DNA from: an uncultured Poribacteria bacterium
Lineage (GTDB): Bacteria > Poribacteria > WGA-4E > WGA-3G
DNA length: 64,000 nucleotides
Reading direction: 5' to 3'
Assembly (NCBI GenBank): GCA_951828385.1
Contig: OX639973.1
Location: 620,001 to 684,000 of the forward strand
How positions within the stretch are numbered: the stretch's first letter is position 1; every line of letters begins with the position of its first letter. Shown here piece by piece: positions 39,985 through 49,605 of the stretch. Below the pieces are notes generated by a model. The model had not been told where the DNA came from and searched no databases. It saw only the letters and a list, made by a program, of their open reading frames with translations. Made by a program: the position numbers and the translations under genes.

Positions 39985-40635
39985 TTAGTGCGTATCGGAA
40001 TGGCGAATGACATCACCTTTGACGAGGTAATAAACCTCTTCACCGATATTTGCGGCGAGATCACCAACGCGCTCCAGGTGTCGGAAAAGGAGTAAAAGAC
40101 TGATACCGGGTTGGATAAGTTTAGGGTGCTCACTTAAAATCGTTTGAAGTTCATGGAGCATTCTGTCATAGATTTCGTCTACTTCATGATCCCGTTCTCG
40201 AATTTCTAAGGCAAGCTCAGCGTTCCGATTGACAAACGCATCCATCACATCCTTCACCATTGTTTGAATCACTTGTGCCGCGTGCGATAAGTCAATGAAC
40301 GGCTTGACCGGTGGATATTCTAAGAGTTCGATACTCCGTTTGGCGATAGCGACGCTTTTGTCAGCAAGCCTTTCAATGTTGTGGCTGATCTTCATTACCA
40401 TCGTCAGGAAGCGGAGTTCAAATGCTACCGGTTGGTGGAGCGCGATTAACTGGATGCACAAGGATTCGATCTCGTTTTCAAACTGATCAATCGTGTCATC
40501 TGTATCAATGACAACGCGAGCTAACGCTTCATCGCGCGCTAAGACGGATTCAACGGCTTGGCGTAACATCTGTTCGGCAAGCCCAGCCATTTCCAAAAGT
40601 TTGTGCTGAAGGGTTCTAATTTCTGCTTGTAACAT
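39985..40635 (-). CDS. phoU: Phosphate transport regulator PhoU
   Basis: A 216-residue all-helical protein made of two three-helix bundles. The metal-binding ExxxD patterns appear in NIERLADKSV and HLERVGDLAANIGEEV. PhoU represses Pho signalling when phosphate is plentiful by bridging Pst and the PhoR kinase. No phoB or phoR lies in this window. It is the last gene of the minus-strand pst locus, 30 bases after an ATPase gene. Confidence 0.92.
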   Translation of the reverse strand: MLQAEIRTLQHKLLEMAGLAEQMLRQAVESVLARDEALARVVIDTDDTIDQFENEIESLCIQLIALHQPVAFELRFLTMVMKISHNIERLADKSVAIAKRSIELLEYPPVKPFIDLSHAAQVIQTMVKDVMDAFVNRNAELALEIRERDHEVDEIYDRMLHELQTILSEHPKLIQPGISLLLLFRHLERVGDLAANIGEEVYYLVKGDVIRHSDTH

Positions 40636-40665
40636 ATTTTCTGCCGCGGCGACTTGAGGTTTCGG

Positions 40666-41445
40666 TTAACCGAGTCTGCCTGTTACATACTGTTCAGTTC
40701 TATTGTCCTGTGGATTCGTAAAAATTTTTTCCGTTGCTCCAAATTCGATTAACTCACCGCCATAGAGAAACCCGGCAACGTCAGAGACACGTGCGGCTTG
40801 TCTTCTTTTGTTGGTGGCAAAGATGAGCGTGCAGTCGTTTGTAAGGTCGCGCACAAGTGTTTCAATCTTGACGGTTTCTATAGGATCCAGTTCTCCACAC
40901 GGTTCATCAAATATCAAAACTTCAGGGTCAACTGCCAAAGCACGTGCGATACAGAGCAGTTGCTGCTGTCCTCTTGAGAGTTGTTCTGGCGTTTCATCCA
41001 AGATGTTTTCAACTTCACCCCAAAGTCCTGTTTTTCGTAGGTTTTTCTCAACAATCGTATCGAGATGTTCGGATTGGTTTACGCCGGAGATCCGGGCACC
41101 GTAGGCTACATTTTCATAGATGGAGCACCGAAAGAGTATGGGTCTTCGGAACACCATACCGATCTGTTTCCGAAGCGCGGTGGTATCTGTTGAAGCGTCT
41201 AAGTGTACGCCTTTAAAAAGTATTTCGCCAGTAGACTTGAAATTCGGTATAAAGTCATTCAATCGATTGATACATCGGACGAGCGTGCTTTTACCACAGT
41301 TCGCAGGTCCGATGAACGCCGTTACCTGTTTCTGTTGGACCTCGAAAGAGAGGGATCTCAGAATCTGCTCGTCCCCATACCAGATATTTAGATCACGAAT
41401 ACACAAGATAGGTTGCTCTTTCTCACTTAGCATCTTTGGTATCAC
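40666..41445 (-). CDS. PstB-like phosphate ABC ATPase with altered Q- and H-loops (copy C)
   Basis: A 259-residue ABC ATPase. Walker A (GPANCGKST, about 46-54) and Walker B with catalytic glutamate 181 (IFDEPCGELD) are normal. The signature is LSRGQ at 156-160, near canonical. The Q-loop glutamine is replaced by arginine (MVFRRP, position 100), and the H-loop histidine by asparagine (ATNKRRQ, position 212). These are losses expected to disable its own catalytic site while leaving the signature to serve a partner. It lies between phoU and a PstA-like permease gene. Confidence 0.85.
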   Translation of the reverse strand: MIPKMLSEKEQPILCIRDLNIWYGDEQILRSLSFEVQQKQVTAFIGPANCGKSTLVRCINRLNDFIPNFKSTGEILFKGVHLDASTDTTALRKQIGMVFRRPILFRCSIYENVAYGARISGVNQSEHLDTIVEKNLRKTGLWGEVENILDETPEQLSRGQQQLLCIARALAVDPEVLIFDEPCGELDPIETVKIETLVRDLTNDCTLIFATNKRRQAARVSDVAGFLYGGELIEFGATEKIFTNPQDNRTEQYVTGRLG

Positions 41446-41472
41446 GAGATAATTTGGAATACCCGCCTCTGC

Positions 41473-42312
41473 TTATCTGGGCAGGTTAACTGTGTTGCGT
41501 CCGGAAGAACGGTGCGTCTCTATCAGGGTGCTGGAGAGAACGCTTAAAAACAGGGCTCCACTTAAAAATAGCATGAATCTACCAGGCATTTTTCCCGATT
41601 CAGTTGTATAGTGCCATGTGTAAATACCGATGAGTAACGCTGCTGCGGCAAAAGCACGAGACATCGCCCGGCATCCGCCTGCAAGTATACGGGTGAAGGC
41701 GAGTGGCATCACCTGTCGTTTGAGTACTTGCCATTTGCTTGCTCCCAATACGTAAGCCGCTTCACGGATCGGAGTAGCAATCGAATGAAGAGCTCCTTGG
41801 GTTGTCTTGATTGTTACCGGCATTACCATCAATATGAAGGTTAACGCCTCAGCATAAAACAACGTGGTATCGTGCTGAACAGGTATTGCCTCAGCGTTCT
41901 GAGGGACCGGAGAGCCCCCGATCATTTTGAGAGTGCCAGCGTAACTAAAAAAAATACCGATTGCCAGAATTCCGAATAATAGTGAAGGAATACCCGTCAA
42001 AATAGCGACTAAACCTTCAATCAAACGTCGAACCCAATTGGTTTCTGGAAGCCATTCCTGTAAATAGAAAGCACATGCTATGCCAAACAAAATTGCCAAG
42101 AAACTCATCAAGAGAACGAGATAAAGATCGCTGAACAAGTTGGTAGGCATCGCGTTTGGTAGCGGTGCGGCTGACACTGCTTGCATGCTGACCACACGCG
42201 TTTTTATTAGCACATTCCACATCAGAATGAAGGCGACTCCTAATATAACAAAGGTGATGCTCTGCAAAACGATTTTCTGTTTTCGCTCTGCGCGAGTAGT
42301 CATGGAATTCAT
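41473..42312 (-). CDS. Second PstA-like phosphate ABC permease
   Basis: A 279-residue permease with about six membrane helices. The EAA loop that contacts the ATPase is EAAYVLGASKWQVLKRQVMP. It resembles PstA more than PstC, with PSLLFGILAIGIFF and the glycine-rich loops between helices. The complete pstC-pstA pair lies upstream at 46397-48663, so this is an extra half-transporter subunit, flanked on both sides by PstB-like ATPases. It may form an alternative transporter with PstC or a homodimer. Confidence 0.8.
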   Translation of the reverse strand: MNSMTTRAERKQKIVLQSITFVILGVAFILMWNVLIKTRVVSMQAVSAAPLPNAMPTNLFSDLYLVLLMSFLAILFGIACAFYLQEWLPETNWVRRLIEGLVAILTGIPSLLFGILAIGIFFSYAGTLKMIGGSPVPQNAEAIPVQHDTTLFYAEALTFILMVMPVTIKTTQGALHSIATPIREAAYVLGASKWQVLKRQVMPLAFTRILAGGCRAMSRAFAAAALLIGIYTWHYTTESGKMPGRFMLFLSGALFLSVLSSTLIETHRSSGRNTVNLPR

Positions 42313-42408
42313 GATCTGAAAACTTCTTATGAAGAGGCATTATGTCGGTATAGCAAAACAAACGGCATTTTCTAATTTTAATAAAACCGTTGCTCGTGTA
42401 GTGCTTTC

Positions 42409-43194
42409 CTAACCGTACCGCATCTGTACGTAATCAGCGGTTCTTTCGTGCTTTGGGTCCTCAAACAGTGCTTGGGTTTCTCTGTGTTCGATAAGTTCAC
42501 CAAGGAACATGAAAATACACTCTTCGCTGACTCGGCGCGCTTGCGCCATGTTATGTGTCACAATTAAAAATGTATATGTCCCTGCCAGGATTTCCATGAG
42601 TTCTTCAACGGCAAGCGTACCTTTTGCATCTAAGGCGGAGCAGGGTTCATCCATTAAAATAATTTTAGGTTTAAGGGGTAGCAGACGGGCGATACAGAGT
42701 TTTTGTTGCTGCTCCAGCTGGAGCGATGTCGCCCGGGTCTCCAATTTGTCCTTCAGATCCTCCCAAAGAAAAACAGATGTGAGTGCTTCTTCAACAATTT
42801 GATCCGATTCTGTCCGCGTGAGACTCCGCATTGGGGAATGGATACGTAATCCGAACAAGATATTCTCGTAAACGGAAATCGGCAACGGATTCGGTCTCTG
42901 AAACACCATCCCAACGGCTTTTCGGAGTTCCGGCAAGGAGACATCTGGATCATAGATATTTTTCCCTAATATCTCAATCTTCCCCTCTGTCGTAACGTTG
43001 CCGTAGCGTTCATTGACGCGATTAAAACAGCGCAATAGCGTTGTTTTTCCACATCCAGAAGGACCAATAAGGGACGTTATCTGACCGTCTGGTATTTTTA
43101 CGTTGACATCAATGAGTGCCTGAAAATCGCCATACCAAAGGCTGAGATTTTCGGTTTCAATGCTATGATTCATAGGCGTAGTTTGCAAGTTCAT
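42409..43194 (-). CDS. PstB-like phosphate ABC ATPase with a lost signature motif (copy B)
   Basis: A 261-residue ABC ATPase. Walker A (GPSGCGKTT), the Q-loop (MVFQRPNP, Gln99), Walker B with glutamate 183 (LMDEPCSALD) and the H-loop (VTHNMAQ, His214) are all canonical. The signature, normally LSGGQ, reads LQLEQ at 158-162. It therefore retains everything for its own ATP site but cannot complete a partner's site. This is the opposite defect to copies A and C. It starts two bases after the end of copy A. Confidence 0.88.
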   Translation of the reverse strand: MNLQTTPMNHSIETENLSLWYGDFQALIDVNVKIPDGQITSLIGPSGCGKTTLLRCFNRVNERYGNVTTEGKIEILGKNIYDPDVSLPELRKAVGMVFQRPNPLPISVYENILFGLRIHSPMRSLTRTESDQIVEEALTSVFLWEDLKDKLETRATSLQLEQQQKLCIARLLPLKPKIILMDEPCSALDAKGTLAVEELMEILAGTYTFLIVTHNMAQARRVSEECIFMFLGELIEHRETQALFEDPKHERTADYVQMRYG

Positions 43195-43196
43195 TT

Positions 43197-43952
43197 TTAT
43201 CCAAAAGTCCCATTGACATAATCATAAGTAGCTTGATTTGCGGGATTATCGGAAAAAATCACATCCGTTGTGTCAATCTCAATGAGATCGCCATTGAGAA
43301 AAAAGGCAGTCCGATTCGCTAACCGTTTTGCCTGTTGCACCAAATTCGTGACGAGCAAAATCGTCATTTCTGTCTGTAAAGTTTTCAGTACATCTTCAAT
43401 ACGCATCGTTGTGACAGGATCAATCGCGATAGAAAATTCGTCAAGACAGAGTACCTCCGGTTGATGTGAAAGGGCACGCGCGATTGTCAGACGTTGTTGT
43501 TGTCCACCTGACAGTTTGGTACCGAGGGTGTTCAAACGGTCTTTCACTTCGTCCCAGAGTGCTGCTTGCTGTAGACAGCGTTCAACGATTTCATCCAATT
43601 CAGACTTTGTACGAAGCCCGGCTGTCCGTGGCGCGAAAGCGACGTTATCGTATATTGAGAGCGGTAAACCGACCGGCAGAGGTAGCACCATACCAATACG
43701 TCGGCGCAATTCATAGACATCGCCAATTGTGTCAATATCCACGCCATCCAATTTGACAGAACCTTGCACCGTTGCCTCCGGTGTGAATTCCAAGGTTCTG
43801 TTGATGACTTTTAGGAGCGTCGTTTTACCGGATTGCGCTGGCCCGATGATACTGAGAATCTCGTTTGGATGAACATCAAAGGAAATTCCGTTCAGTGCAG
43901 ACTTGTCTCCGTAATGGACCTGTAGGTCGGAAATCTCTATTTTGTTTTCCAC
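43197..43952 (-). CDS. PstB-like phosphate ABC ATPase with altered Q- and H-loops (copy A)
   Basis: A 251-residue ABC ATPase. Walker A (GPAQSGKTT) and the signature LSGGQ (147-151) are canonical, and the Walker B glutamate is present (CLDEFS, Glu172). The Q-loop reads MVLPLP (glutamine lost at position 91), and the H-loop reads VTNLVQQ (histidine to asparagine at 203). It should bind ATP and lend its signature to a partner but not hydrolyse efficiently by itself. It is encoded two bases upstream of copy B on the same strand, favouring co-translation and heterodimer formation. Confidence 0.88.
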   Translation of the reverse strand: MENKIEISDLQVHYGDKSALNGISFDVHPNEILSIIGPAQSGKTTLLKVINRTLEFTPEATVQGSVKLDGVDIDTIGDVYELRRRIGMVLPLPVGLPLSIYDNVAFAPRTAGLRTKSELDEIVERCLQQAALWDEVKDRLNTLGTKLSGGQQQRLTIARALSHQPEVLCLDEFSIAIDPVTTMRIEDVLKTLQTEMTILLVTNLVQQAKRLANRTAFFLNGDLIEIDTTDVIFSDNPANQATYDYVNGTFG

Positions 43953-43967
43953 GTTTGCCTCGTATGT

Positions 43968-44321
43968 TTAACCTCTTCGTTGCCCCATCTGTGTTTTCGT
44001 TAAAATGATACGAATTTTTTTAATCAAAGTTAGTGATCCAGACACAATTGCAACGAAAAATGCTATGCCAATCAGGGAGCCACTAACACCGACGAAGGCA
44101 GTAAGAAGTTTCCCACCCGCTGTAATTGGATAAACATCCCCATAACCGATCGTTGTTAATGTTAGAAGGGTGAACCGCATTGCGTCAAGCAAAAACCCAA
44201 ATGCCTCAGGTTGCGCTTCCTTTTCAAAGAAGTGGATACCACACGCAGCGAGAAACACCAATACCGACAACAGAACGATAAATGCTAAAAGTTTCTTAAT
44301 AATCTCAGCCTTGTTCTTCAT
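43968..44321 (-). CDS. Two-helix potassium channel (pore-only)
   Basis: A 117-residue protein with two membrane helices and the selectivity filter TTIGYGD at 56-62. It is nearly the same in its pore region (AACGIHFFE, EAQPEAFG) as the larger channel just upstream, so it looks like a duplicate that lost the voltage-sensor half. The ATG at 44321 is preferred over GTG at 44333. It overlaps the end of the upstream channel gene by about 17 bases. It may form homotetramers or mix with the larger channel. Confidence 0.75.
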   Translation of the reverse strand: MKNKAEIIKKLLAFIVLLSVLVFLAACGIHFFEKEAQPEAFGFLLDAMRFTLLTLTTIGYGDVYPITAGGKLLTAFVGVSGSLIGIAFFVAIVSGSLTLIKKIRIILTKTQMGQRRG

Positions 44322-45039
44322 TTTCTCTTTCACCCTCTTCTGATTTTTCGCGTTCCACTCGCGCCTCTGTTAAGGCAGAAGCTAACAAGCCGGACGGAAT
44401 TGCTATTAAGCCGACCCCGACAAGCGCGACGAGAGCGGTGAAAAGTCTCCCACCAGGGGTCGTCGGATAGACATCCCCATAACCGATTGTGGTTAATGTC
44501 ACGACAGACCACCACATTGAATCAAGAATAGAGCCGAATGCCTCAGGTTGTGCCTCTCTTTCAAAGAAGTGGATGCCGCACGCAGCGAGGTAGACGAACA
44601 TCAACGATAAGATGACCAGTGCTAAAAGTTCCTGTTGAATTTCACGGAGTGCCGCTCCGAGTCGATCTACGGCTAAGATAAACCGCGTCGCCTTGAATAC
44701 CCTGAAAATTCGCAAGAACCGAAGGATCCGCAATACGCGAAACCCCGGCACGAGGAACAGAGAGGGTAAAATGGCGATCAGGTCAATTAGACCATAGAAA
44801 CTAAAAACGAAATCCAGTTTCTTTGGTTCAATATAGACGCGCAGGGTATATTCTATCGAAAACAGTACCAGAAAAGCCACGTCCAGGACAATGAAATGGG
44901 TTGCATAAGGATCTACCTCCAATTGCTGCCTATCGGATTCAATCACAAAAACAACAGCAGAAGCGAGAATCAGGAATTGGATGAGCCCACTAAATATACC
45001 TCCATTGACAATTGCTCGTAATCTTTCTTTTCTGTCCAT
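44305..45039 (-). CDS. Voltage-gated-type potassium channel (six helices)
   Basis: A 244-residue channel. Helices S1-S4 are followed by the pore. S4 carries regularly spaced arginines (RVLRILRFLRIFRVFK, about 101-116), the pattern of a voltage sensor. The selectivity filter TTIGYGD is at 183-189. The ATG at 45039 follows AAGGAAGG directly. The open frame continues upstream into the end of the TnpB element, but those extra residues come from the hairpin of that element and are not part of the channel. It lies inside the pst locus. Confidence 0.85.
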   Translation of the reverse strand: MDRKERLRAIVNGGIFSGLIQFLILASAVVFVIESDRQQLEVDPYATHFIVLDVAFLVLFSIEYTLRVYIEPKKLDFVFSFYGLIDLIAILPSLFLVPGFRVLRILRFLRIFRVFKATRFILAVDRLGAALREIQQELLALVILSLMFVYLAACGIHFFEREAQPEAFGSILDSMWWSVVTLTTIGYGDVYPTTPGGRLFTALVALVGVGLIAIPSGLLASALTEARVEREKSEEGERENEEQG

Positions 45040-45061
45040 GAACCTTCCTTCCTGTGATAGA

Positions 45062-45250
45062 CCCCCGACTGAAGTCGGGGACTTCCGCAAAAGTTATGCG
45101 AAAGCATTTGTGGATTTCAGAACCCGACTGGTGGATTCAACGGAGCAGCCGACGATCTTGTTGAACAGGACAATCGGTCTTACTTCTCCTAAGCCAAAGG
45201 AAGCTACCCCTTCCTTAAGAATGTTCATAGCAGCGTTCTGGTCGCGGTCC
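45062..45250 (-). ncRNA. Predicted omegaRNA (reRNA) of TnpB with terminal hairpin
   Basis: TnpB proteins use an RNA transcribed from the 3' end of their own gene and the right end of the element. Here the minus strand ends with a perfect stem CCCCGAC-TTCA-GTCGGGG (45063-45080), just beyond the tnpB stop codon. The guide would follow, covering the ribosome site and start of the potassium channel gene. The 5' boundary is a guess. Confidence 0.4.
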
Positions 45251-46317
45251 AGGTGTGTATGACATTGAGGACACGTCCAGTGTCGATCTGCTAACGTTAA
45301 GGTCTTATTTTTATGTCCACAAACACAACAGCACTTTGTGGTGGGGGTCCACTGCCCAATTTTCAAAACGGAACGACTCCGTTTCTTGGATTGGTGTTTG
45401 AGTTTCTTTAAGAACTCACCCAAGGCGAGGTCCGAAACTTGTTTACCAAAGAGGGTTTTCATGCCACGAAGGTTCAGGTCTTCAAAGAACAGAATATCAA
45501 ACTTACGACAGAGGTCTATCGCAAATTTCCAATGATGGTCTGTGCGTTGATTTGTCGTCTTCTTATGGATACGTGCAACTTGCTTTCGGCAACGTTCTTG
45601 ATTATTAGACCCTTTGACCTTGCGTGAATACACTTTTTGTGCTTTCGCTAAATCGTCAGCGTTCTGTTTGTAAAACATAGGAGAAGTATATCGGTGTCCG
45701 TCACTGCCAGTCAGGAAGTTTTTGCCTGCATCTTTGATACCAAAGTCGAACCCTTCAGCCTGACCCGTCTTGGGTTCATATTTGACTTCCAAAAAATCTT
45801 CAGTGAGTGTGATATACACGTCTCCAAGGGCATCTCGTGTAACATGAACTTGTGTGATTTCACCTTGTATTTTTCTATGCAAGGCGAAACGATACCAACG
45901 GCTGTTGAGGCGAATACGATACGTTGGGTGATTTCTTTCGTTTTTCTGTTTATCTAATACTTTTTCTATAGGCACTTGTGTGCCATCAAAGGTCATACCT
46001 TTGTGTTTCTTACAGGACTTGAACTTCGGGTGACCTCTACCGAGGGTCTTCATTTCTCCAAAGGATTCTGCTAACCGTTTCAGAACATTCTGCAAGGACC
46101 ACGCGTAGGGGATATTCCAATGCTTATACTTCTCAAGTTTCTTGAGTTTCGTCAAATGAGCAGACATCTTGGTATACGAAAGTCCCTTACCATACCTGCG
46201 TTTATATCGCATACACAACCCAAGGAAATGGTTACGCACAATACCACAAATATCAAAATCAGTGTGGAGGCACTTCAGCGATTTATCGTGAAAAAGTTTA
46301 TGTTTTGTGTTTCGCAT
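45094..46317 (-). CDS. tnpB: RNA-guided DNA endonuclease TnpB (IS605 OrfB)
   Basis: A 407-residue TnpB. The RuvC catalytic residues are all present: Asp191 in FDFGIKD, Glu279 in FFEDLNL and Asp359 in LDRDQNAA. The zinc finger has CxxC pairs in CCCVCG and CPQC (about 330-352). The N-terminal wedge and REC regions and a basic bridge are of normal length. TnpB cuts DNA next to a target-adjacent motif using the omegaRNA and helps retain the element. It is intact, so the element may be recent or still under selection. No TnpA is seen. Confidence 0.9.
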   Translation of the reverse strand: MRNTKHKLFHDKSLKCLHTDFDICGIVRNHFLGLCMRYKRRYGKGLSYTKMSAHLTKLKKLEKYKHWNIPYAWSLQNVLKRLAESFGEMKTLGRGHPKFKSCKKHKGMTFDGTQVPIEKVLDKQKNERNHPTYRIRLNSRWYRFALHRKIQGEITQVHVTRDALGDVYITLTEDFLEVKYEPKTGQAEGFDFGIKDAGKNFLTGSDGHRYTSPMFYKQNADDLAKAQKVYSRKVKGSNNQERCRKQVARIHKKTTNQRTDHHWKFAIDLCRKFDILFFEDLNLRGMKTLFGKQVSDLALGEFLKKLKHQSKKRSRSVLKIGQWTPTTKCCCVCGHKNKTLTLADRHWTCPQCHTHLDRDQNAAMNILKEGVASFGLGEVRPIVLFNKIVGCSVESTSRVLKSTNAFA

Positions 46318-46396: not shown

Positions 46397-47314
46397 CTAC
46401 CACTTCTTCCGAGTTCGGACATAAATCCTTAGCACAATCGATACTGCATTGACGAGTAACACACTGCCTACGAGTACCACCGCAGTTCCATAAGGGATGC
46501 CTTCCGTAACATCCGGAACCTGTGTTGAAATCGTGAAGAGATGGAGTGATAGTGCCATACACTGTTCTGTTATATTATAGGCAAAAAGGTTTCCTTCTGC
46601 AATAGCTTTATAAAAGACGGCTCCCGTAAACATAATTGGTGCTGTTTCACCTGCTGCGCGCGACACCTGTAGAATCACACCCGTCAAAATACCGCTGATT
46701 GAGTTCGGGATGACAATACGCCGTATGGTTTGCCATCGCGTAGCTCCGAGATTCCAACACGCTTCCCGGAAGGACATCGGTACCGCCTTCAAAGCCTCCG
46801 TGGTGCTGGCAATGATAACAGGGAGCGTCATGATCGCCAACGTGAGCGACGCTGCTAAAATTGATTCGCCGAGTCCCGCGAAGAGTACAAATGCGCCGAC
46901 ACCGAACAAGGCGTGGACAATGCTTGGCACACCTGCGAGGTTCACAACAGCCAAGTTTGTGATACGCGTAAACCAACTCTCACGGGCATACTCGTTGAGA
47001 TAGACGGCTGCGAACACGCCAATAGGGGCCGCTACTAATAGAGAGACGACGACTAAATAGATTGTTCCGAGGAAAGGTGCCCAAAGCCCGCCAGCACGCA
47101 TGTTATCCTTCGGGTTCGTAAATAGGAACTCAAGCGAGAGAACGGGGAGCGCCTTGTAGAGGAGGTAACCAACAATGAGCAGCAGCGGAATAATCATCAG
47201 GCTCGTCATCACGAGGAAGAAAATCCGCATCACATTTTCGATCCACCGCTTCTGTTTACCGATCTCTGTTTCTGTAAACATCGCTTCTGGTGATACCTGC
47301 ATATCGGTGTTCAT
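46397..47314 (-). CDS. pstA: Phosphate ABC transporter permease PstA
   Basis: A 305-residue permease with six membrane helices. The ATPase-contact loop is EACWNLGATRWQTIRRIVIP, and NLAGVPSIVHALFG is a typical PstA block. The substrate is phosphate, delivered by PstS. It follows pstC and precedes the TnpB element, so the ATPase genes it needs are about 3 kb further down the same strand. Confidence 0.93.
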   Translation of the reverse strand: MNTDMQVSPEAMFTETEIGKQKRWIENVMRIFFLVMTSLMIIPLLLIVGYLLYKALPVLSLEFLFTNPKDNMRAGGLWAPFLGTIYLVVVSLLVAAPIGVFAAVYLNEYARESWFTRITNLAVVNLAGVPSIVHALFGVGAFVLFAGLGESILAASLTLAIMTLPVIIASTTEALKAVPMSFREACWNLGATRWQTIRRIVIPNSISGILTGVILQVSRAAGETAPIMFTGAVFYKAIAEGNLFAYNITEQCMALSLHLFTISTQVPDVTEGIPYGTAVVLVGSVLLVNAVSIVLRIYVRTRKKW

Positions 47315-47400: not shown

Positions 47401-48663
47401 TTACTCTTGGCGGATGCCTTTGATGACTAAATCAGCGATGAGGTTGACTAAAAACGTAATGGTAAAGAGCAGAACACCGATGATAAAAAGTACCTGATAA
47501 TGTTCACCACCTCTTGCCACTTCGCCGAGTTCCGCGGCGATCGTCGCCGTGAGCGTGCGAATCCACGAGAGGGGTCCCGATGGAATGTTAACGGAGTGTC
47601 CTGTCGCCATGAGGACTGCCATCGTCTCACCAATGGAGCGTGCGGCACCGAGCAGCACAGCTGCCAAGAGTCCATTTTTTGCCGCGGGTAACAGCACGCG
47701 GTAGATGACCTGCCACCGCGTAGCACCAAGGGCTTCCGCCGCTTCACGATAGGAGTCGGGAACGGCTTTGAGCGCGTCCTCTGCTATAGAGACGATAATA
47801 GGCACACTCATCAAGGCTAACATGATGCTGCCGTTCAACATCGTTAAACCGATCGGGACATTGAACACTGCAATAATCAGTTGATTCATCAGGGTCAATC
47901 CGATAAACCCCCACACAACAGAAGGGATCGCGGCGAGCAATTCGATGATAATTTTAAATGTTTCTCTGAGTTTTGGGCTGCAGAACTCCGATACAAAGAT
48001 CGCTGCCCCGAGTCCAAAAGGAACAGCAATACACATCGCTAAGGCAGTTACACTAAAAGTGCCCAGAATCAAAGCGAAGGTACCGTATCTTTTGTTACTT
48101 AACGAAGTTGGGTACCATTCAGGACTTGTCAGGAATTGTCCCAAGTCTAATCCGTTGAAAAGAAAGCCTGCTCCCTCTCGAAACACAAAGAAGAAGATAC
48201 CGAAGACAAAAACAATAGAACTAATCCCACATAAGCGAATTAACAATTCAATTACGGTTTCAGATGATGTTTCCGAGTCAGCTCCGAAGCGGTTTTCGCC
48301 CTTTGTGCCTTTAAGAATGCCTAATTCAACTAACGCCCAAGTTCCACCAGCAATAATTGGTATAAAATAAATCAGTGTCCACCAACCTGACAATGTCCAT
48401 ACTGACAACCCCCCAATTCCAGCAATAATTGGAATAAGATAAACCAGTGTCCACCATGCAGATTTATTCCGATCGTGCCAGCGTTTTGCTGTTACTGCCA
48501 GCTGCATCCAAGCTGAGACTAATGTTATAAAGAGCAGATATGATGATGCTGTATAAGCGGCATAAGTGATAGTAGAAATGGCGATGATTAAAAAATGCAT
48601 CATCCACCATGCTGTTCTGTTAATTCGTCCTTTGAACGAGAAACAGATATTTATAAAATTCAT
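47401..48663 (-). CDS. pstC: PstC permease fused to an N-terminal DUF805 domain
   Basis: A 420-residue protein. The C-terminal 280 residues are a normal PstC (for example EAAEALGATRWQVIYRVLLP). The first 130 residues match DUF805: FKGRINRTAWW near the start, WHDRNKSAWW in the middle, and GENRFGADS at the end. Within it WWTLVYLIPIIAG and WWTLIYFIPIIAG are a tandem partial duplication. DUF805 proteins are small membrane proteins of unknown role. I know no such fusion as the usual form of PstC. The ribosome site is weak. It follows pstS closely. Confidence 0.88.
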   Translation of the reverse strand: MNFINICFSFKGRINRTAWWMMHFLIIAISTITYAAYTASSYLLFITLVSAWMQLAVTAKRWHDRNKSAWWTLVYLIPIIAGIGGLSVWTLSGWWTLIYFIPIIAGGTWALVELGILKGTKGENRFGADSETSSETVIELLIRLCGISSIVFVFGIFFFVFREGAGFLFNGLDLGQFLTSPEWYPTSLSNKRYGTFALILGTFSVTALAMCIAVPFGLGAAIFVSEFCSPKLRETFKIIIELLAAIPSVVWGFIGLTLMNQLIIAVFNVPIGLTMLNGSIMLALMSVPIIVSIAEDALKAVPDSYREAAEALGATRWQVIYRVLLPAAKNGLLAAVLLGAARSIGETMAVLMATGHSVNIPSGPLSWIRTLTATIAAELGEVARGGEHYQVLFIIGVLLFTITFLVNLIADLVIKGIRQE

Positions 48664-48681: not shown

Positions 48682-49605
48682 TTAGTTGTTTTCCAGAGGT
48701 ACGAAACCGAGTTCCTCTACAATCTTCTGACCTTCTGCCGACAGAATCCAATCAAGATACGCCTTCACTTCCCCTGTAGGTTCACCGAGGGAATACATAT
48801 ATAATGGACGCGCGATCGGATAGGTTTTGGCAAGGACATTTTCAAGACTTGGGGCATAATAAGGGGCATCATCTGCTGTAGCAACTTCCAACATTTTCAC
48901 ATGCGAAGTTGCATATCCCATACCACTATAGCCGATAGCACACGGCGTTCGTCCGATAACTTCTACCACATCTTTAGAGCCGTGCAAATCCAAAGATCCG
49001 AGTTCAAAGTCACGCGTTTTACCAAGCAGTGCTTCCCGAAAATAGAAATAGGTGCCGGAATTAGATTGCCGACTGATACGGATAATCTCGTCGCTTGGAC
49101 AGTTGGCGTGCATGATACCGAGGTCACTCCATTTCGTTATTTTACCATCTTCACCATATATTTCCGCGAGTTGGGGAATCGTAATTTTATCGAGAGGCGT
49201 GTCGTGGTGGACATAGACCGCGAGCGCATCGTACCCGACAATAAATTCTTGTGGCACTTTACCGGTATTTTGCGTCGCTTGCTCTAACTCTTTGGGTTTG
49301 ATTTGACGACTGCAGTTCGCAATATCTACGGTGCCATTAATAAGTGCAGCGACCCCTGTACCAGAACCACCGCCTGATACCTCTACTGATGCTGTGCTGG
49401 TGACATCGACATATCTCTCTGCCCATGCCTGTGCCAAATTCACCATCGTATCTGAGCCTTTATTCTTGATGATGACTTGTGCTGCTTCTTTAACAACAGT
49501 AGCACTCTCACTATCTTTCGGTGAACGACCGATGATAACGAAGCCGCATGCTACAGCCACCAAAATGCCTATAATCGTGTAACCCGCCCGACCATATTTT
49601 TCCAT
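48682..49605 (-). CDS. pstS: Phosphate-binding protein PstS
   Basis: A 307-residue periplasmic binding protein, probably a lipoprotein (ILVAVAC near residue 19) or anchored by its N-terminal helix. The typical blocks are IIKNKGSDTMVNL and VSGGGSGTGVAALINGTVDIANCSR, which form the phosphate pocket. It is the first gene of the minus-strand locus and is followed by pstC 18 bases later. It would capture phosphate and deliver it to PstC/PstA. Confidence 0.93.
   Translation of the reverse strand: MEKYGRAGYTIIGILVAVACGFVIIGRSPKDSESATVVKEAAQVIIKNKGSDTMVNLAQAWAERYVDVTSTASVEVSGGGSGTGVAALINGTVDIANCSRQIKPKELEQATQNTGKVPQEFIVGYDALAVYVHHDTPLDKITIPQLAEIYGEDGKITKWSDLGIMHANCPSDEIIRISRQSNSGTYFYFREALLGKTRDFELGSLDLHGSKDVVEVIGRTPCAIGYSGMGYATSHVKMLEVATADDAPYYAPSLENVLAKTYPIARPLYMYSLGEPTGEVKAYLDWILSAEGQKIVEELGFVPLENN

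What the first reader, a model, noticed from the sequence alone, without database searches (positions are those of the whole stretch)
48274..48663. PstC fused to a DUF805 domain
The first 130 residues match DUF805, with a tandem partial duplication inside. A membrane domain added to the phosphate permease may regulate it or recruit a partner.
Basis: partly seen in the sequence, partly recalled or inferred. Interest (0 to 1): 0.55.

Follow-up and report, generated by a model that had tools for sequence, protein, structure and literature searches.

The report
DUF805 domain fused to phosphate permease
In a family of uncultured bacteria related to sponge-associated Poribacteria, the phosphate-uptake membrane protein PstC often carries an extra membrane domain at its start; the fusion is real, is shared by many species, and this extra piece has been passed between species as a unit, but what it does is still unknown.

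Summary
The fusion is real. ORF 47401-48663 (-, 420 aa) is DUF805 (PF05656, 64 bits, cut-off 25.7) joined in frame to a full PstC (TIGR02138, 268 bits, cut-off 196), between pstS and pstA. It is not an assembly error: 21 of 58 genomes of the family have it (6 of 38 in the window's genus, 15 of 18 in a sister genus, 0 of 2 in a third), all with the same junction. Named relatives are Candidatus Poribacteria. All 21 fused DUF805 domains form one clade, but the PstC bodies do not (AU p 2e-62); within the genus bare and fused alleles interleave. G029 and G005 share a ~470-bp tract (pstS end-DUF805-PstC start) at about 98% identity between flanks near 85%. So the domain moves as a cassette by homologous recombination. 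The internal duplication is an extra hydrophobic segment: 18 of 21 fusions have two after the R-W-H-D motif, against 1 of 23 standalone DUF805s. It may restore an even segment number so that PstC keeps its orientation, but three fusions lack it. dN/dS (0.16-0.29; PstC 0.02-0.04) says the domain is maintained but less constrained. Function (docking, regulation or assembly) is inferred, not shown. New variant of a known kind.

The parts
47401..48663 (-). DUF805-PstC fusion gene, 420 aa plus stop
48277..48645 (-). DUF805 domain, about residues 7-129 (with the extra hydrophobic segment)
   Evidence: Pfam PF05656, two stretches; extent set by alignment to standalone DUF805
48347..48384 (-). second copy (in reading direction) of the 38-nt repeat
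48419..48456 (-). first copy (in reading direction) of the 38-nt repeat
48565..48615 (-). hydrophobic segment 1, residues 17-33
   Evidence: GES scan; helix 16-37 in the AlphaFold model
48487..48537 (-). hydrophobic segment 2, residues 43-59
   Evidence: GES scan; helix 41-64
48409..48459 (-). hydrophobic segment 3, residues 69-85
   Evidence: GES scan; helix 70-88
48352..48402 (-). hydrophobic segment 4, residues 88-104; one of the two copies (segments 3 and 4) of the duplicated segment
   Evidence: GES scan; helix 93-116; 22 of 23 standalone DUF805 have one segment here
48247..48279 (-). junction D-(S/A)-E-T-S-S-E-x-(V/I)-I, the same in all 21 fusions
47419..48258 (-). PstC body, residues 136-415
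   Evidence: TIGR02138 above cut-off
48682..49605 (-). pstS, 18 nt upstream
   Evidence: TIGR02136 above cut-off, gap
46397..47314 (-). pstA
   Evidence: TIGR00974 above cut-off

Best explanation
The gene encodes the cell's only PstC, a complete phosphate permease, with a resident-type DUF805 membrane domain joined in front of its first transmembrane helix. Shown: one open frame, a conserved junction, an intact PstC body, intact DUF805 motifs, a single clade of fused domains, and later exchange of the domain as a cassette by homologous recombination using pstS and pstC as flanks. Inferred: the domain sits beside PstC in the membrane as a small helical bundle whose conserved residues (G-R-I-N-R, R-x-(H/Q)-D, K-G-x-x-G-x-N-x-x-G-x-D) face the cytoplasm. 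It acts as an accessory module, most likely docking or stabilising a partner or tuning the Pst complex in cis, and is not part of the transport path. The fusion replaces the short positively charged N-terminus (M-N-I-L-R-K-K-S...) of bare PstC.
For: Domain scores. 21 of 58 family genomes fused, and one PstC match at E<=1e-60 in each of the 57 genomes that have any. Same junction in 21 of 21. Fused DUF805 domains one clade, 89/84, in 90% of 200 bootstrap trees. PstC bodies of the fused rows not one clade: 9 changes, at least 6 forced by starred branches; AU p 2e-62 for all 21, 6e-61 for the six of the genus, 3.4e-4 for the three single forms, 2.6e-37 for the three duplicated forms. The rpoB tree (29 rows from 30 genomes) interleaves fused and bare genomes in the same way. 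Third-position differences G029/G005: 3/113 in DUF805 against 82/285 in PstC, Fisher p 2e-10; five sister-genus pairs and G025/G019 show no significant contrast (p 0.06-1). Tract limits from windows and alignment. dN/dS of the domain 0.25, 0.29, 0.16 in three groups, PstC 0.03, 0.04, 0.02. Motif residues invariant in 15 of 15 aligned fusions of 21.
Against: The domain is absent from 30 of the 36 genus genomes whose PstC N-terminus could be read, and from 3 of 18 in the sister genus, so it is dispensable. Its dN/dS is about 7-8 times that of PstC, as expected also for a tolerated passenger. The H of R-x-H-D is Q in several fusions. No partner, expression or phenotype is known. The AlphaFold models are poor (mean pLDDT 47.5 and 47.4; most of the DUF805 part 50-73), so packing against PstC is not shown.
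Confidence: 0.6

Rival explanations
1. A tolerated passenger: DUF805 was appended once, does no harm, and spreads or is lost by chance when the pst operon recombines.
For: Patchy presence in the genus, higher dN/dS than PstC, swapping explained by flanking homology alone.
Against: dN/dS well below 1 over 105 pairs in the sister genus (median 0.16); motif residues invariant; kept in 15 of 18 sister-genus genomes. But selection against misfolded membrane protein could also keep dN/dS low.
Confidence: 0.25
2. The domain serves mainly PstC biogenesis: a longer, correctly oriented N-terminal membrane anchor that helps insertion or stability of PstC.
For: It stands directly before PstC helix 1, with an added hydrophobic segment in 18 of 21 fusions.
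Against: Bare PstC with a short charged N-terminus is the commoner state in the genus; three fusions have an odd count of segments.
Confidence: 0.12
3. Several independent fusions of DUF805 to PstC.
For: Fused rows do not form one clade in the PstC-body tree; three distinct subgroups of fused DUF805.
Against: Same junction residues in 21 of 21, one DUF805 clade at moderate support 89/84, and near-identical domain between distant bodies.
Confidence: 0.1
4. Assembly or annotation artefact.
For: None found.
Against: 20 further genomes, from sample sets with different isolate names; no start codon at the junction conserved across fusions.
Confidence: 0.01

Closest known systems
PstC, phosphate ABC transporter permease (TIGR02138; solved relatives 9k3s, 9k3x)
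   Same: Full-length PstC body, operon neighbours pstS, pstA, phoU
   Different: Carries about 130 extra N-terminal residues; the solved chains match only the PstC part
DUF805 (PF05656; E. coli YhaH/YhaI named from recall)
   Same: Profile match above cut-off, G-R-I-N-R and R-x-H-D motifs
   Different: Fused to a permease; 18 of 21 have a second hydrophobic segment after R-x-(H/Q)-D
DUF3333 and DUF3708, domains noted beside BPD_transp_1 in phosphate-type ABC permeases
   Same: A domain of unknown function attached to the same type of permease (passage of PMC3597751; that they are N-terminal is recalled)
   Different: Different families: no match of this protein to either in Pfam

Membership tests
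PstC (TIGR02138) | Equivalog score above cut-off | tested here: met
   268.4 against 196.45 bits
PstC (TIGR02138) | Operon with pstS, pstA, PstB-type ATPases, phoU | tested here: met
   the three PstB-like proteins score under the PstB cut-off (282-314 against 343 bits)
PstC (TIGR02138) | Transports phosphate | not testable with these tools
   needs an assay
DUF805 (PF05656) | Profile above gathering score | tested here: met
   64.4 against 25.7 bits
DUF805 (PF05656) | Same segment layout as standalone members, one hydrophobic segment after R-x-H-D (my own criterion, not a curated one) | tested here: not met
   two segments here; 22 of 23 standalone have one
DUF3333 / DUF3708 extensions of Pst permeases | Profile match | tested here: not met
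   no match at E<=1

The most novel reading that the evidence does not exclude
The duplicated segment is a topology repair. A standalone DUF805 has three hydrophobic segments; put in front of PstC with its positive loops inside, three would leave the PstC N-terminus on the wrong side. Duplicating the third segment makes four, so PstC keeps its N-in orientation. The repaired domain then became a cassette that species exchange by recombination inside the pst operon. The three single-form fusions (G029, G013, G005) would need another solution, such as a third segment that enters and leaves on the same side.
Probability: 0.3. Interest if true: 0.6.

Novelty: new variant of a known kind. Interest (0 to 1): 0.42.

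Why it matters
It is a natural series of the same permease: bare, with a three-segment domain and with a four-segment domain, in close species. That makes two general questions testable: what a DUF805 domain does (now tied to a known complex), and how membrane proteins solve the orientation problem when a domain with an odd number of segments is fused in front. It also shows a membrane-domain cassette exchanged within a housekeeping gene.

Tried and rejected
Assembly error: rejected. Separate translation of PstC from an internal start: no start codon conserved at the junction; not excluded for rare starts. Fusions elsewhere: plasmid collection, 153 records with a match, none covering 80% of the query; viral contigs, 219 pattern stretches, no relative; 296 genomes of the phylum of G084 (the genome of locus L155, Geodermatophilus), 259 with a match, no listed row starting before profile position 101, list cut off; 84 genomes of the window's phylum, where the DUF805 in long frames outside the family belongs to other proteins in the two that I read, G036 and G042. 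The genome-contig scan used family-specific patterns, so it does not exclude distant fusions. Structure: two AlphaFold jobs with shallow alignments gave poor models, so no fold search was run. Hydrophobicity does not separate the third segment of the single forms from that of standalone domains, so a re-entrant segment there is only a guess. Papers: searches for DUF805 with phosphate (4 papers, listing only), DUF805 (8, listing only), PstC/PstA/N-terminal/PhoU/fusion (15, listing only) and DUF3333/DUF3708 (1) showed no DUF805-PstC fusion in titles or starts of abstracts; searches on Poribacteria and polyphosphate, YhaH/YhaI, PstSCAB cryo-EM and topology parity gave nothing used (listings only). 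PMC9427106 was searched for DUF805, no occurrence in the held main text; two passages of PMC3597751 were read. A first script did not orient minus-strand loci and one used too strict a pattern; both were replaced. Rows dropped: G014 (PstC cut by the contig end) and G082 (no PstC match) from the N-terminus counts; L058, L063 and the fused L046, L050 from the standalone set of the DUF805 tree, L046 and L050 from the count; fetched DUF805 loci that a text pattern did not find (L039, L040, L059, L060, L066) were in neither, and DUF805 matches without a locus were not looked at.

Full report
WHAT IS THERE. The frame 47401-48663 on the minus strand encodes 420 residues. Residues 7-84 and a second stretch match DUF805 (PF05656, 64.4 bits, cut-off 25.7) and 214-418 match BPD_transp_1. 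NCBIfam names 136-415 PstC above its equivalog cut-off (268.4 against 196.45 bits). pstS ends 18 nt upstream and pstA follows. It is the only strong PstC match of the genome: the next is pstA (83 bits), then weaker permeases. The duplication inside DUF805 is two 38-nt copies, 92% identical, 72 nt apart; the full 72-nt units are 63.9% identical.

NOT AN ARTEFACT. A protein search of the 58 genomes of the family found a PstC in 57; 21 are fused: 6 of 38 in the window's genus (G000, G025, G019, G029, G013, G005), 15 of 18 in a sister genus and 0 of 2 in a third (N-termini read). Two genus genomes could not be read at the N-terminus (G014 cut, G082 without match), so the readable fraction is 6 of 36. 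The named collection returned 23 loci; 20 are fusions, all Candidatus Poribacteria by title. The window's own record is not named; that it belongs to this phylum is inferred from these relatives. Bare PstC of the genus starts M-N-I-L-R-K-K-S or close to it and runs into the same S-E-T-x-I-E. All 21 fusions run G-x-D-(S/A)-E-T-S-S-E-x-(V/I)-I.

ONE DOMAIN, MANY BODIES. In a tree of 21 fused and 21 standalone DUF805 domains the fused ones are one clade (89/84; 90% of 200 bootstrap trees), next to a standalone group in G014, G010, G032 and G073. In the tree of 58 PstC bodies (56 of the family, 2 outgroup) the fused label needs 9 changes, at least 6 forced by well-supported branches. Holding the fused rows together is rejected: AU p 2e-62 for all 21, 6e-61 for the 6 of the genus, 3.4e-4 and 2.6e-37 for its single and duplicated forms; the tests were run after the tree had been seen. 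The rpoB tree (29 rows; G065 of the 30 genomes gave no match) puts G029 with bare G010 and G000 beside them, G005 with bare G020, and G013 with bare G032, G027 and G004.

THE CASSETTE. Between G029 and G005 identity is 95-99% from the last part of pstS through DUF805 to the start of PstC, and 76-90% over the rest of pstS and the first 600 nt of the PstC body; a second patch at 96-97% lies near the end of PstC. The alignment shows a tract of about 470 nt with few differences. Outside the domain and its edges G029 is 86-99% identical to bare G010, in most windows above 90%. Third-position differences G029/G005 are 3 of 113 in DUF805 and 82 of 285 in PstC (p 2e-10). The contrast is also seen for G029/G013 (p 0.003), G005/G013 (0.001) and G000/G025 (2e-4), is borderline for G000/G019 (0.054), and is not seen for G025/G019 or five sister-genus pairs (p 0.06-1). 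NG86 dS agrees: 0.04 against 0.59 for G029/G005. So DUF805 plus its edges has moved between species by homologous recombination. Direction, and whether some bare alleles are reversions by the same route, is not settled.

SELECTION. Median dN/dS of the domain is 0.25 (3 pairs), 0.29 (3 pairs) and 0.16 (105 pairs, 33 with saturated dS); PstC gives 0.03, 0.04 and 0.02. Among 15 aligned fusions (of 21) G12-R-I-N-R16, W19, W20, R61, D64, G119, G122, N124, G127 and D129 are invariant. The domain is a maintained protein sequence under weaker constraint than PstC.

TOPOLOGY. A hydrophobicity scan gives three segments in the five standalone DUF805 and the two single-form fusions shown, and four in the four fusions of the duplicated form shown. 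After R-x-(H/Q)-D, 18 of 21 fusions and 1 of 23 standalone domains have two segments (Fisher p 3e-8; the rows are related, so this may reflect one event). The AlphaFold models show four helices (16-37, 41-64, 70-88, 93-116) against three (16-43, 47-78, 85-102) before PstC, at pLDDT about 50-73 there; the PstC part is not usable. Positive charges lie in the N-tail and the R-x-H-D loop, which by the positive-inside rule (recalled) puts both inside. Then four segments keep PstC's N-terminus inside and three would not, unless the third segment of the short form does not span. Hydrophobicity gives no sign of that. The two forms cannot both be plain spans with the same N-end orientation and the same PstC orientation; an experiment must decide.

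HOW IT MOST LIKELY WORKS. PstC works as in other Pst complexes; DUF805 is an accessory membrane module in cis. Because it is dispensable across species but maintained where present, with its motifs kept, I think docking, stabilising or tuning the complex more likely than a passenger (about 2 to 1; judgement). No result here shows a partner.

WHAT IS KNOWN. The paper searches made showed no report of the fusion. Domains of unknown function beside the permease domain are already noted for phosphate-type transporters: DUF3333 and DUF3708 (passage of PMC3597751). So this is a new variant of a known kind. Outside the family no fusion was seen on plasmids (0 of 153 records with a match reach 80% coverage) or in the listed rows for 296 genomes of another phylum; this is not a full survey.

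Noticed in passing
44305-45090: A voltage-gated ion-channel-like gene (Ion_trans, 118 bits) lies inside the pst operon, after pstA; a homologue stands there in 8 of 8 loci of the family that I compared, fused or bare.
   Followed up: partly
39985-43952: Three PstB-like ATPases (all under the PstB cut-off), a divergent PstA-like permease and PhoU follow in the same operon; same order in the 4 compared loci long enough to show it. The middle ATPase (42409-43194) reads L-Q-L-E-Q where the signature L-S-G-G-Q (recalled) is expected. E. faecalis also has adjacent pstB genes (PMC12096839, start of abstract in the listing).
   Followed up: partly
45094-46317 and 43968-44333: A TnpB-family gene sits between pstA and the channel gene in the window, and a shorter second channel-like frame follows the channel; a second channel-like frame was seen in 2 of 8 compared loci.
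   Followed up: no
G000:C1:5321285-5323864 (outside the window; locus L130): The rpoB frame of the window's genus is about 1,757-1,789 codons in most genomes against 1,343-1,402 in the sister genus, with PF00562 split in two pieces: a large lineage-specific insertion.
   Followed up: no
L047, L049, L052, L056: The standalone DUF805 genes nearest to the fused domain lie next to a similar glycosyltransferase-like gene in 4 of 4 loci (Pfam Glycos_transf_2 tested for one).
   Followed up: partly
G000:C1:4035293-4035595 (L001): The genome's other DUF805 match contains two stop codons in the matched stretch and may be a decayed gene.
   Followed up: no
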